DNA from: an archaeon
GTDB lineage: Archaea > Nanobdellota > Nanobdellia > Pacearchaeales > GW2011-AR1
Direction of reading: 5' to 3'
NCBI GenBank assembly: GCA_030638105.1
Contig: DAOWFF010000057.1
Location: 1-12,978 of the forward strand
Length of the DNA stretch: 12,978 bases
In this document: in pieces, positions 9,841-12,978 of the stretch
How positions within the stretch are numbered: position 1 is the stretch's first letter
Layout: the number at the start of each line of letters is the position of its first letter
The notes under the pieces: generated by a model
Seen by the model: only the letters and a program-made list of their open reading frames with translations
Database searches by the model: none
What the model was told of the DNA's origin: nothing
Translations under genes and position numbers: made by a program

Positions 9841-11208
9841 TCAAATCCTCAACTTTTTCCCTTTCATAAATTTCTTCGCGAATTTCATCATTTGTTTTTG
9901 GTTCATTCCTTTTGACATATCTATGTTTGCCCCGCCTTTTATCATCTCGTTGAGCATGTCATATTGTTTTAGCAAAGAACGAATGTCTGAATTATTTACT
10001 CCTGAGCCCTTTGCAATCCGCGAAATTCTTGAGCTCTGTTTTTTCAGGAGCTCGGGATTTTCTTTTTCTTCAGGAGTCATTGATTTAATTATGTGTTCCC
10101 ATTTTGAAATTTTGCTTTGCTGGTTTTCCATCAAGTTGTCGGGAATTTTTGCATTGTTCATTCCTGGAATCATGCCTTTGATTTTTTCAAAACCGCCAAG
10201 AGAATTCATTGATTTCACTTGCTCAATAACATCTGTTAAACTCAATTTGCCCTGTTCTAATCTTTCCTGCATGGCTTGTTGCTCATCTTCATTTGTAACG
10301 GATTTTATTTTTTCAATTAATGTCTGCAAGTCGCCCATTCCCAAAAGCCGTGAGAGAAATGTCTGCGGATTAAATTCTTCTATGTCGTTTACTTTTTCGC
10401 CGGTTCCAATAAAATAAACTGGTGCTTCTGTTTCTGCACAGGCAGTCAAAGCCCCGCCACCTTTTGCTGTTGAATCCATTCGCGTAATTACAACCCCTGA
10501 AATATTCACTGCCTCTTTAAATTCCTGTGCCTGTTTTTTTGCTGCCTGTCCAATGTCTGCAGGCATGATTAAAACCGACGCTGTTGGTTTGATTTCCTTG
10601 CTCAAAGATTTTATTTCCTTGCTTAATTCCTTGTCTAAATTGTGTCTCCCTGCAGTGTCTATTAAAATCAAATTATAGTCCTTTAATTTTTTTTCATATT
10701 TTTTCCAGATTTTTATTGGGTCTTTTTCTTTTGAATCTATAAAATAATTTAACTTGTTTTTTTCTGCTAATTGTTTGAGTTGTTCGGGTGCTGCAGGACG
10801 ATGCACATCCAAGCCGATTAAGGCAACTTTGTTCCCGCGTTTTGAAAAATAATTCCCTAGCTTAGATATTGTTGTTGTTTTTCCGCAACCATACAATCCG
10901 AGAAGCATAATTCTGTTTTGCTTTGGCTGAAGTTTTAATTGCTTGTGTTCTCCAAGGATTTTAACAAGTTCGTCGTGAAGGAGTTTAATTATGTGTTCTT
11001 TTTTTTCTATTCCTTTTATTTTTTCATCAAAGGCAGATTTTTTAATTTTGTCGCTCAATTTTTTTACTAAAACAACATTTACATCTGCTTCAATTAACGC
11101 CCTTTGCAAATCCCGAACAATTGAATCCACTAAATTCTTGTCAAGAAAAATAGCATTCGCTATCTTGTCTGTCGCTTTTCTTAAAACCTCGCCTAATCGT
11201 TCGAGCAT
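9841..11208 (-). CDS. srp54: Signal recognition particle 54 kDa GTPase (SRP54/Ffh)
   Basis: SRP54 binds signal sequences on ribosomes and, with FtsY, delivers membrane and secreted proteins. The 455 residues show the N helix bundle (1-95) and the GTPase: G1 GLYGCGKTTT (104-113), G2 DVHRPAA (134-140), G3 DTAGRHN (184-190), G4 TRMD (242-245, usually TKxD/TRxD), AKGGG (248-252), and G5 GTGE (268-271). The Met-rich M domain (about 300-455) contains GSGVNNSDIRSLLKQY, the SRP RNA-binding helix-turn-helix, and ends in a Lys-rich tail. Length and order are normal. No TATA box lies 25 bases before the ATG at 11208. The nearest good one is at 11394-11403, so the gene has a long GC-rich leader that is either structured or contains a 59-codon ORF. 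The channel-like gene follows at once. Confidence 0.96.
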   Translation of the reverse strand: MLERLGEVLRKATDKIANAIFLDKNLVDSIVRDLQRALIEADVNVVLVKKLSDKIKKSAFDEKIKGIEKKEHIIKLLHDELVKILGEHKQLKLQPKQNRIMLLGLYGCGKTTTISKLGNYFSKRGNKVALIGLDVHRPAAPEQLKQLAEKNKLNYFIDSKEKDPIKIWKKYEKKLKDYNLILIDTAGRHNLDKELSKEIKSLSKEIKPTASVLIMPADIGQAAKKQAQEFKEAVNISGVVITRMDSTAKGGGALTACAETEAPVYFIGTGEKVNDIEEFNPQTFLSRLLGMGDLQTLIEKIKSVTNEDEQQAMQERLEQGKLSLTDVIEQVKSMNSLGGFEKIKGMIPGMNNAKIPDNLMENQQSKISKWEHIIKSMTPEEKENPELLKKQSSRISRIAKGSGVNNSDIRSLLKQYDMLNEMIKGGANIDMSKGMNQKQMMKFAKKFMKGKKLRI

Positions 11209-11482: not shown

Positions 11483-11758
11483 ATGGAAATTTCAATAACA
11501 AAAATGTCTTCAAATGGGCAAGTAGTAATTCCTTCGGAAATTCGGGAGAACGGAATGATCAAGCCGCTCACGAAATTTCTTGTTTTTAACAAACAGGGAA
11601 ACATTTTTTTAAAACAGATAAAAGAAGATTCCTTGATTAAAGATATGGAATTTGTTGAAAGAATTAGAGAAAGTGAGGAGCAGATAAAAAACGGAGAATT
11701 TGTTAGTGTTAATGTTAATCTTGAAGAAAACGAAATTGATAAAATTTTAATGAATTGA
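11483..11758 (+). CDS. AbrB/SpoVT-type antitoxin
   Basis: This 91-residue protein has the swapped-hairpin AbrB/MazE DNA-binding domain at about 3-46 (ITKMSSNGQVVIPSEIRENGMIK, a close match to the family pattern xSSKGQVVIPKEIR, then FLVFNKQGNIFLKQI). The acidic C-terminal tail (about 50-91, MEFVERIRESEEQIKNGEF and NLEENEIDKIL) is of the kind that wraps around and blocks a toxin. It is followed one base later by a RelE-type toxin gene, so the two are translated together. Such antitoxins usually repress their own operon. The palindrome at 11430-11443 is a candidate site. Antitoxin role is inferred from fold and pairing. Confidence 0.85.
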   Translation: MEISITKMSSNGQVVIPSEIRENGMIKPLTKFLVFNKQGNIFLKQIKEDSLIKDMEFVERIRESEEQIKNGEFVSVNVNLEENEIDKILMN

Positions 11759-11759
11759 A

Positions 11760-12002
11760 ATGGAAATTATTTTTTCTGACGAATTCAAAAAGGACTTTAG
11801 AAAGATTAAAGATAAAAAAACACGCCTGAAAATTTTAAAGCAAATTAAAAAAATTGCAGTTTATTCTGGCGTCGGGAAGCCATTAAAATATAATTTAAAA
11901 AATCACAGAAGTTTGAGGATTCATCCGTTTAGATTAATTTACAGGACTGAGAAAAATAAAATAATTATTAATTGTTTTGACCATCGGAAAAAAGTTTATT
12001 AG
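11760..12002 (+). CDS. RelE/ParE-family toxin
   Basis: The 80-residue protein has the compact RelE/ParE layout: beta strand EIIFSDEF, a Lys-rich helix pair (about 8-34), then strands SLRIHPFRLIYRTEKNKIII and the closing FDHRKKVY. The basic residues R53, R58, R62, H75 and R76 and the last-residue Y80 are placed as in mRNA-cleaving RelE toxins, which act on the ribosome A site. The family also contains gyrase poisons (ParE), and the sequence alone does not exclude that. The PLKYNLKNHRSLRI stretch is typical of the archaeal RelE members. It follows the antitoxin by one base. The chain is full length, with no stop or frameshift, so the pair appears intact. Confidence 0.85.
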   Translation: MEIIFSDEFKKDFRKIKDKKTRLKILKQIKKIAVYSGVGKPLKYNLKNHRSLRIHPFRLIYRTEKNKIIINCFDHRKKVY

Positions 12003-12018: not shown

Positions 12019-12216
12019 TTATCCAATTAATGTTATAATATAATCCATTAAATTAATCCACAATCTGATTAAAGTTAATATTCCTACAATTAGAACAATT
12101 CTCCAAAACCAATTTGCATGTTTCCACATCAACTTAGTTTCTTGCCATTTAGCACTTGCTATCTCCTTTTCAAGCTGTTCTTTTTGTTTCTTTAGTTCTT
12201 TTGATGTCCTTTCCAT
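12019..12216 (-). CDS. Small membrane protein with N-terminal coiled coil
   Basis: This 65-residue protein has a charged helix (1-27, KELKKQKEQLEKEIASAKW) that fits a coiled coil. One or possibly two hydrophobic segments follow (about 35-52, FWRIVLIVGILTLIRLWI, then LMDYIITLIG). I recognise no family. TTTTAAAA at 12237-12244 lies about 25 bases before the ATG, which supports the start. It converges on the toxin gene (stops 16 bp apart). It shares orientation with ftsY, and the ftsY tail duplicate lies between them. Probably a real small gene with role unknown. Confidence 0.6.
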   Translation of the reverse strand: MERTSKELKKQKEQLEKEIASAKWQETKLMWKHANWFWRIVLIVGILTLIRLWINLMDYIITLIG

Positions 12217-12236
12217 ATAAAATAAAACAAAATATA

Positions 12237-12244
12237 TTTTAAAA
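12237..12244 (-). promoter_or_regulatory. TATA box of the 65-residue membrane protein
   Basis: TTTTAAAA is centred about 25 bases from the ATG at 12216. The adjacent AAAATATATTTT (12229-12240) is an alternative. Confidence 0.45.
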
Positions 12245-12273
12245 AACTATCTGTTTAGATACAATAACTTTTT

Positions 12274-12312
12274 TTACAACCCCAACTTCTCAATAAATTT
12301 TTGTTTGTCAAA
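12274..12312 (-). pseudogene. Duplicate of the last 12 codons and stop of ftsY
   Basis: On the minus strand this reads FDKQKFIEKLGL and TAA, identical in protein to the end of ftsY (12435-12473). The first five codons match at every base. The last seven sense codons all differ, each only at the third position. In the same frame the ORF continues back through the GC-rich insert with no stop until near the ftsY end, but it has no start codon. Confidence 0.8.
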
Positions 12313-12436
12313 ATCAAAACAACCTAAGCGGTTTTTTACGCCGAAGGTGATCCCCCAGGGATGGATTTTCCCTTCCTTTGCGGTTAAGCGATTTTTTATT
12401 GCAATTCTTCTAAAATCGCATAGACAAACAAAATTT
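12295..12436. repeat. Inverted repeat around a GC-rich insert after ftsY
   Basis: The 15 bases 12295-12309 and the 14 bases 12423-12436 are inverted copies with one bulged base (core GACAAACAAA / TTTGTTTGTC). They enclose a smaller hairpin GCGATTTT/AAAATCGC (12412-12419 with 12388-12395). They also enclose two direct copies of TAAGCG[G/A]TTTTTTA exactly 60 bp apart (12325-12338, 12385-12398) and a GC-rich core (12340-12383). This fills the 218 bp between the 65-residue gene and ftsY. Confidence 0.55.
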
Positions 12437-12978
12437 ATAATCCTAATTTTTCTATGAATTTTTGTTTGTCAAAAACTTCTATGTCGTCGTATTGTTGTCC
12501 TGTTCCCAAGTAAAGAATTGGTTTTTTTGTTACATAACCGACGCTGAGTGCTGTCCCGCCTTTTTCGTCAATGTCTGCTTTTGTCAGGACAATTCCGTCA
12601 ATTCCGATTTCCCAGTTGAAACTTTTTACCTGTTCTATTACATCATTTCCAGTTATTGATTCGCCGACAAAAATTTTTGTATCTGGTTTGCAGACCCTGG
12701 AAATTTTTTCTATTTCTTTTAAAAGATTTTTTGAGGTGTGCATTCTTACTGCAGTGTCTATTAAAACGCAATCAACAGAATTTTTCTTTGCGTATTTGAT
12801 TGCGTCAAACCCAACAGACGCAGGGTCAGAACCATACTCGTGCGAAATAATTTTCACCCCTATTTTCTCGCCGTGTTCTTTTATCTGCTCAATTGACGCA
12901 GCCCTGAATGTGTCGGCTGCAGCGAGGACACATGAAATTCCCCGGCGTTTTAAAGAGTCGGCAATTTTCGCAATCGTC
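12435..12978 (-). CDS. ftsY: Signal recognition particle receptor FtsY, C-terminal part (5' end outside window)
   Basis: FtsY is the membrane-associated GTPase that docks SRP. The window holds 180 codons; the P-loop and N domain lie beyond the right edge. Visible motifs are AAADTFRAASIEQ (G2 region), DTAVRMHTSKNL (G3), FVGESITGND, TKADIDEKGG (G4) and YLGTGQQYDDIEVFD (G5), ending in FDKQKFIEKLGL. The frame enters from base 12978 in ACG ATT GCG and is open throughout. The GTG at 12857 is only an internal codon. The DTAGR box of the family reads DTAVR here, a Gly to Val change at the residue next to the gamma-phosphate. A second copy of the tail lies downstream. The partner srp54 is 1.2 kb away in the same direction. 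Confidence 0.93.
   Translation of the reverse strand, partial: TIAKIADSLKRRGISCVLAAADTFRAASIEQIKEHGEKIGVKIISHEYGSDPASVGFDAIKYAKKNSVDCVLIDTAVRMHTSKNLLKEIEKISRVCKPDTKIFVGESITGNDVIEQVKSFNWEIGIDGIVLTKADIDEKGGTALSVGYVTKKPILYLGTGQQYDDIEVFDKQKFIEKLGL

What the first reader, a model, noticed from the sequence alone, without database searches (positions are those of the whole stretch)
12274..12476. ftsY tail present twice, differing only at synonymous sites, across a GC-rich insert
The last 12 residues plus stop of FtsY are encoded at 12435-12473 and again at 12274-12312. Seven codons differ and all seven only at the third position, so the copies diverged as coding sequence rather than as a fresh duplication. 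This is the pattern left when an element inserts into a gene end and supplies its own version of that end. Here the second copy would be the displaced original tail. The element would be only about 160 bp, or a deletion remnant.
Basis: partly seen in the sequence, partly recalled or inferred. Interest (0 to 1): 0.8.

Follow-up and report, generated by a model that had tools for sequence, protein, structure and literature searches.

The report
Tiny archaeal elements duplicating gene ends
The extra piece next to ftsY is one copy of a tiny, hairpin-forming, apparently mobile DNA element found in many Pacearchaeota-type archaea; copies often sit exactly at gene boundaries, and some have a second, protein-identical copy of a gene's end beside them.

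Summary
The last 12 FtsY codons plus stop occur at 12435-12473 and 12274-12312 (minus strand); seven codons differ, all at third positions. The core is not unique: it is a copy of a dispersed, structured repeat with matches on nine other contigs of the same genome. A model of its right-hand hairpin matches 104 of 180 family genomes. Its right end favours gene boundaries: a start codon within 14 nt in 27 of 105 copies versus 0 of 105 on the left. In a minority a gene end is duplicated across it: ftsY in 3 of 88 parsed loci (three genera), Gins51 in 2 of 10 genomes, two further protein genes, and tRNA ends in ten copies. In the six protein pairs first compared, every difference is synonymous (24 codons, 0 amino acids). 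Most likely these are small integrated elements that leave a working gene end in place, like a miniature of phage/ICE attachment at gene ends. The enzyme is unknown. That the distal tail is the displaced original is not supported: the joined tail matches close relatives better. One larger case carrying an ORF keeps 'deletion remnant' open.

The parts
12435..12977 (-). 3' part of ftsY (SRP54-type GTPase domain; the gene runs off the contig end)
   Evidence: ORF; PF00448 E 7e-60
12435..12473 (-). gene-end copy 1: FDKQKFIEKLGL*, joined to the ftsY body
   Evidence: closest to relatives G066/G106
12423..12434 (-). ARM': inverted complement (ATTTTGTTTGTC) of the start of the tail, directly after the stop codon
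   Evidence: inverted repeats I3/I4; own-species equivalent in G030; complementarity test on 15 copies
12388..12419 (-). P1: hairpin GCGATTTT...AAATCGC, 5' stem of the repeat
   Evidence: fold; equivalent arms with changed sequence in other copies (10 valid cases)
12363..12387 (-). conserved linker TTAACCGCAAAGGAAGGGAAAATCC of the dispersed repeat
   Evidence: same linker in the G030 ftsY insert but not in the G106 one
12338..12362 (-). extra GC-rich module (ATCCCTGGGGGATCACCTTCGGCGT), present in only some copies (also C2, C39)
   Evidence: alignment A1
12314..12337 (-). P2 (type A): AAAAAACCGCTTAGGTTGTTTTGA, right-end hairpin
   Evidence: related type-B P2 shows covariation
12274..12312 (-). 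gene-end copy 2: FDKQKFIEKLGL* with seven synonymous codon changes, abutting P2

Best explanation
12313-12434 is a copy of a small, hairpin-forming element family of Pacearchaeota-type archaea (mostly about 70-160 bp from one gene-end copy to the next) that behaves as a mobile or integrative element. Shown: (1) it is dispersed in this genome and family; (2) its right end is a structured hairpin (P2) that often abuts a gene boundary (start codon, tRNA end), and some copies lie in frame inside proteins; (3) in a subset a gene end is present on both sides; in the 16 clear short cases the complete gene is on the left (P1) side and the fragment starts at P2, in one longer case the complete gene follows P2; (4) the shared stretch usually stops at the gene boundary, and in protein genes the two versions encode the same residues; (5) in the gene-end cases a short ARM' left of P2 is complementary to the first bases of the fragment. 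Inferred: the element recombines into a conserved gene end using a gene-end copy that can serve as a functional replacement, as attP sites of phages and ICEs do, so the host gene stays intact. Repeated joining of either copy to genes would explain why both stay protein-identical. ARM'/fragment pairing may position the reaction on a folded single strand. The recombinase is unknown and may act in trans.
For: Dispersed copies: own genome; family 104 of 180 genomes, (stricter filters); 19 exact-pattern stretches in genome contigs, all archaeal MAGs, 17 titled Pacearchaeota or Nanoarchaeota. Structure of type-B P2: 98.3% of cells paired, 3 pairs changed on both sides, 0 of 500 shuffles as high. Boundary position: start codon right of the element in 27 of 105 (24 at offset -1 or 0) versus 0 of 105 on the left. 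Duplications abutting P2: 16 of 106 copies score 12 or more (p <= 0.0072; control 99% = 11), 10 at tRNA ends, 2 in protein genes, 4 unclear. Same-gene recurrence: ftsY in three genera, Gins51 in two. Synonymous-only divergence in six protein pairs: 24 codons, 26 nt, 0 aa; a seventh pair (L257) has one synonymous change in 13 codons. Shared stretch ends within 3 nt of the gene boundary in 14 of the 16 clear short cases (read). ARM': 0 of 2000 permutations reach the observed mean in 15 selected cases. In-frame copy in a Trm5-type gene. The window element is 97% identical over 59 nt to the C43 copy, so it looks younger than the 7-of-36-nt split between the tails.
Against: No recombinase is linked: some element-rich genomes have no PF00589 hit at E <= 1e-5 (G118 with 19 element matches, G128 with 13; G000 has one weak hit) and several have no RVT_1 hit (G000, G118, G094, G128). 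Three exact-pattern viral scans and one plasmid search found nothing. 90 of 106 copies show no duplication by the 250-nt test, and 12 of 13 own-genome copies show none. Which copy is native is unresolved. The G106 ftsY insert lacks the linker match and is assigned by architecture only. In L257 the complete gene is right of P2, against the polarity of the others. No filled/empty pair within one species was found, so movement itself is inferred.
Confidence: 0.55

Rival explanations
1. Ordinary transposition with a variable-length target-site duplication of the gene end, followed by recombination with diverged relatives that replaced one copy, giving synonymous differences.
For: Exact 12-24 nt duplications at tRNA genes; homologous exchange between species could produce unlike copies. 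In the G118 Gins51 case the two heads share a codon (AAC) where the six relatives compared have AAT, as expected for duplication in place.
Against: The shared stretch stops at the gene boundary instead of running on by random lengths in 14 of 16 clear short cases (and others); a replacement would be needed independently in several protein genes; most copies show no duplication.
Confidence: 0.25
2. A structured 5' leader or portable ribosome-binding site (P2 contains AGGTG about 7 nt before ATG, by reading) that regulates or restores translation; the end duplications are by-products of its spread.
For: 27 of 105 copies sit just before start codons in the sense direction. Downstream genes include S4e and FttA by Pfam and, by recall only, L37Ae, L10e, L39e and RpoP.
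Against: Copies also lie in tRNA introns and at tRNA ends on either strand, and inside ORFs; at ftsY the element follows the gene.
Confidence: 0.15
3. A spliced intron or translational bypass element whose removal joins copy 2 to the gene body, so both tails are selected.
For: Both tails stay protein-identical; copy 2 is in the ftsY frame in G030 and G106.
Against: The element is sense in ftsY but antisense in Gins51 and at tRNA-Lys and tRNA-Thr 5' ends; copy 2 is out of frame in the window; copy 1 already has a stop; no Rfam intron match.
Confidence: 0.03
4. Assembly chimera of two strains.
For: MAG of 75 contigs.
Against: The same architecture occurs in separate genomes and genera at ftsY, Gins51 and tRNA genes.
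Confidence: 0.02

Closest known systems
microCIMEs (decayed ICE/IME remnants at gene 3' ends, Streptococcus salivarius; PMC7563491, passages seen)
   Same: 130-220 bp, no genes, flanked by att sites at a gene's 3' end, occur in tandem structures
   Different: There derived from ICEs or IMEs found at the same sites; here one structured core is shared across many target genes, and no ICE was seen
Prophage attachment in a protein gene (e14 in icd; PMC2973815, passages seen)
   Same: Two versions of a gene end differing mostly synonymously (ten synonymous, two non-synonymous stated for icd)
   Different: e14 is about 15 kb with its own genes; the window element is about 160 bp with none
Rickettsia palindromic elements (review PMC10969869, passages seen)
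   Same: About 150-bp palindromic repeats, found in frame inside protein genes
   Different: Gene-end duplication and tRNA-boundary positions are not mentioned in the passages seen; no sequence comparison was made
Casposons / Cas1 integration (review PMC9939771, passages seen)
   Same: Target tRNA 3' ends at the T-loop or the aEF-2 gene 3' end; duplications; tandem copies
   Different: Casposons have terminal inverted repeats, about 15-bp duplications and cas1-polB; here no conserved terminal repeat was seen and duplications run from 12 to 41 nt outside tandem cases; Cas1 was not searched
MITEs and REP/BIME-type repeats (features partly by recall)
   Same: Small, dispersed, hairpin-forming
   Different: No conserved terminal inverted repeats seen; the inverted arms are specific to each locus

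Membership tests
microCIME / ICE-derived element | flanked by duplicated gene end (attL/attR-like) | tested here: met
   met in a subset of copies only; 1 of 13 own-genome copies
microCIME / ICE-derived element | related full-size ICE/IME or integrase at the same site | tested here: inconclusive
   no larger duplication-bounded form found in flanks of median 600 nt except one 620-nt case with an ORF of no Pfam or PHROG match; elements occur in genomes without a PF00589 hit
Rickettsia palindromic element | in-frame insertion in protein-coding genes | tested here: met
   Trm5-type gene, insert site shared by several homologues (19 of 120 listed homologues aligned); a second case (L107) translated by eye
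Rickettsia palindromic element | sequence relationship to RPE families | not tested
   no RPE sequences were compared
MITE | conserved terminal inverted repeats | tested here: not met
   inverted arms are locus-specific; the conserved core is one hairpin near the right end
MITE | fixed-length target-site duplication | tested here: not met
   none detected in 90 of 106; others of varied length
Casposon | cas1 gene / casposase in the host | not tested
Retroelement (group II intron, SINE-like) | reverse transcriptase in genomes that carry copies | tested here: not met
   RVT_1 in 69 of 180 genomes; G000, G118, G094, G128, G153, G067 not among them; MAGs are incomplete
Known Rfam RNA or intron | match above gathering score | tested here: not met
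   only tRNA; only tRNA and RNase P above the gathering score

The most novel reading that the evidence does not exclude
A sequence-flexible mini-element in which a folded strand (P2 plus ARM' pairing with the target next to the element end) directs insertion to conserved gene boundaries and carries a recoded but protein-identical gene end, so essential genes such as ftsY, Gins51 and tRNAs can be used as safe harbours: a natural counterpart of 'recoded rescue' designs.
Probability: 0.2. Interest if true: 0.9.

Novelty: new variant of a known kind. Interest (0 to 1): 0.72.

Why it matters
It would show how a very small element persists in reduced genomes with little spare DNA, by sitting on gene boundaries of essential genes without breaking them. 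It gives a clean natural test (synonymous-only gene-end pairs across elements) for how integrative elements keep host genes working, and points to an unidentified recombination activity in Pacearchaeota-type archaea. It also adds small in-frame peptides to proteins such as the Trm5-type methyltransferase.

Tried and rejected
Reverse transcription: RVT_1 hits do not follow the element. A resident tyrosine recombinase: element-rich genomes without a PF00589 hit exist. Virus or plasmid carriers: three viral scans with exact patterns and one plasmid blastn of the window region, no match. Known RNA families: none. RNA intron: orientation varies. Free-energy folding of whole copies was not informative: z between -0.6 and 0.1 for five of seven, -2.4 and -2.6 for two. 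A general test for inverted arms over 47 copies hardly differed from its control (mean 7.06 vs 6.82); the signal appears in 15 gene-end cases chosen after inspection. Codon usage fits copy 1 somewhat better but does not decide which tail is native. Local alignments with gaps were noisy in AT-rich DNA. A search for gene-head remnants further left in 51 copies held in loci of 2.5 kb or more found only the window's case above its control.

Errors and dropped rows: one search printed minus-strand loci unreversed and was redone. In one search the G128 row was misaligned and ignored. Four of 92 ftsY loci were never parsed; three further ftsY loci had borderline scores (L180, L021, L141; p about 0.04-0.05) and were not counted. 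The P1-arm count contains 12 empty matches from a script fault, leaving 10 valid of 22. ARAGORN's label for L259 (Phe with intron) is doubtful. In one search, L281, L283, L254 and L272 pass the score but are low-complexity or not clearly genic and are not counted as gene ends; L229 contains masked bases. The start codon was left out of the Gins51 pairs. A notebook line calling the rpoP differences synonymous was wrong; at least two change the residue.

Full report
Setting. The window is a whole contig (C13) of a 441,662-base MAG in 75 contigs, 75% complete. Exact matches to the element's core in the species collection lie in archaeal MAGs, 17 of 19 titled Pacearchaeota or Nanoarchaeota. ftsY runs off the right end of the window on the minus strand and SRP54 lies at 9841-11208. 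No other genome of the same genus was available to the genus search.

Observation. The ftsY tail FDKQKFIEKLGL* is encoded at 12435-12473 and again at 12274-12312; seven of twelve codons differ, all at the third position. Directly after the first stop codon lies ATTTTGTTTGTC, the reverse complement of the tail's beginning.

The core is a dispersed repeat. A search of the same genome with 12200-12500 found matches on nine other contigs, with further weaker ones and one more contig. The best partner by identity, on C43, is 97% identical over 59 nt. Thirteen copies were aligned. The order is a 5' hairpin P1 (GCGATTT..AAATCGC), a linker AACCGCAAAGGAAGGGAA, optional modules, and a right-end hairpin P2 in two main sequence types: A (as in the window, AAAAAACCGCTTAGGTTGTTTTGA) and B (GCGAAGGAAACCGTAGGTGTCCTCGC). 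For 35 distinct type-B copies the P2 structure is 98.3% paired, with three pairs changed on both sides; paired cells and covariation exceed all 500 shuffles and all slid versions. A model of it matches 104 of 180 family genomes; a plain DNA query matched 42 of 180.

Where it sits. Of 105 copies with enough flank, 27 have an ATG of an ORF of at least 40 codons (or open to the stretch's end) within 14 nt of the right end, 24 of them at offset -1 or 0, against 0 of 105 reading outward from the left end. Nine lie inside what ARAGORN calls a tRNA with intron, 32 within 110 nt of or overlapping a tRNA, six inside a long open frame, and 35 in none of these; classes can overlap. One own-genome copy lies in frame in a Trm5-type gene (PF02475). 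Of 3089 homologues, 120 were listed and 19 aligned: some (P0003, P0016, P0021) lack an insert, several carry diverged or unrelated inserts at the same point just before FDVIVMPRP.

Gene-end duplications. For 106 copies I compared the first bases right of P2 with the 250 nt on the left. Sixteen score at least 12, against a swapped-control 99th percentile of 11. Ten are tRNA ends: seven 3' ends and three 5' ends. Two are protein genes: a G169 gene tail IDFRRAFG*, and the Gins51 head in G118 (PF22090). Four are unclear. Independently, ftsY loci were tested for a second tail within 400 nt: 88 of 92 parsed, duplicated in three, the window, G106 and G030, three genera, at the same codon. The G106 insert lacks the linker match and is placed in the family by its architecture only. 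Gins51 heads in ten genomes: duplicated in G118 and G074, single in the other eight, among them four of G118's genus. In these 16 clear short cases (ten tRNA, six protein) the complete gene is on the left and the fragment begins at P2, and in 14 of 16 the shared stretch ends within 3 nt of the gene boundary; the two exceptions (L275, L229) look like tandem insertions. In the window's own genome only 1 of 13 tested copies, the window's, shows a duplication.

A larger case. Widening the left flank (median 600 nt, 48 of 106 with 1400 or more) added one case: in G074 (L257) a gene head MANIKFSRKIFEK, PheT by recall, occurs twice, 620 nt apart. The left head runs into a different 147-codon ORF without Pfam or PHROG match; the right head follows P2 directly and opens a long ORF. 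One codon of 13 differs, synonymously. Here the long gene is on the right, unlike the other cases, and the interval is not tiny. A further search of 51 copies in longer loci gave no other case above control except the window.

Synonymous only. Across the six protein pairs first compared 24 codons (26 nucleotides) differ and no amino acid does. If one copy had drifted freely the combined chance is about 1e-17 by simulation, a rough figure because one factor rests on a single hit in 100,000, and an extreme null. One exception lies outside the counted codons: in G030 copy 2 has lost its stop. The window's element is nearly identical to other copies in the genome while its tails differ at 7 of 36 positions, so the tails' split seems older than the insertion, unless the elements are homogenised by conversion.

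Which tail is native? The joined tail shares 11 of 12 codons with G066 and 10 of 12 with G106; the distal tail 5 of 12 with each. The distal tail's best matches are G067 and G016, 9 of 10 shared residues each. In G118 Gins51 the joined head shares 7 of 8 codons with G067, the other 2 of 8; of the other five relatives four differ by one codon either way and G000 favours the other head 5 to 2. The joined tail is also the best of 15 windows to G066 and G106, so import of the joined copy cannot be excluded. Numbers are small.

ARM'. In 15 gene-end cases, chosen after inspection, the sequence left of P2 is more complementary to the first bases of its own fragment than to others' (mean 7.27 vs 5.09, 0 of 2000 permutations). 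Over 47 copies in general there was hardly a signal. ARM' at ftsY differs between the window and G030 but fits each one's own tail; in G106 the fit is weak.

Mechanism. Shown: dispersal, structure, boundary position, duplicated and protein-identical gene ends. Inferred: integration by recombination within a gene end, with an element-borne gene-end copy kept functional by repeated use, as for phage and ICE attachment sites. Not known: the enzyme, whether folded DNA or RNA takes part, and whether short copies derive from longer ones. RVT_1 and PF00589 do not track the element; no virus or plasmid match was found.

Comparison. [quoted passage not shown] none shares all. Searches for a description in Pacearchaeota found none in the listings seen.

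Noticed in passing
window 11483-12002 (+): A small ORF with weak DUF2683 similarity (below cut-off) followed by a ParE-type toxin ORF: a likely toxin-antitoxin pair between SRP54 and ftsY.
   Followed up: no
L046 end (G000:C1) and L039 about 3397 (G000:C70): A gene that looks like rpoP (named by recall) occurs on two contigs with different upstream context and a few base differences, some changing the residue; each is preceded by an element copy.
   Followed up: no
RVT_1 hits in G062, G072, G093, G104, G149, G155, G168, G180 and others: Reverse transcriptase matches recur as two neighbouring pieces split near profile position 110.
   Followed up: no
Trm5-type homologues P0002, P0010, P0072 (alignment A2): The same insertion point carries inserts that look unrelated to this element, so it may be a hotspot for several small in-frame repeat families.
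   Followed up: partly
G118:C3 (623 kb contig): All ten pattern-matched copies lie on the same strand.
   Followed up: no
L054, L057, L062, L045: Several leader copies are preceded by a short ORF beginning MKIQ- or MMIKTQ-like (read by eye), upstream of different genes.
   Followed up: no
L257:65-508 (+), G074:C30: A 147-codon ORF that begins with 13 codons of the neighbouring gene's head and then differs completely; no Pfam or PHROG match.
   Followed up: partly
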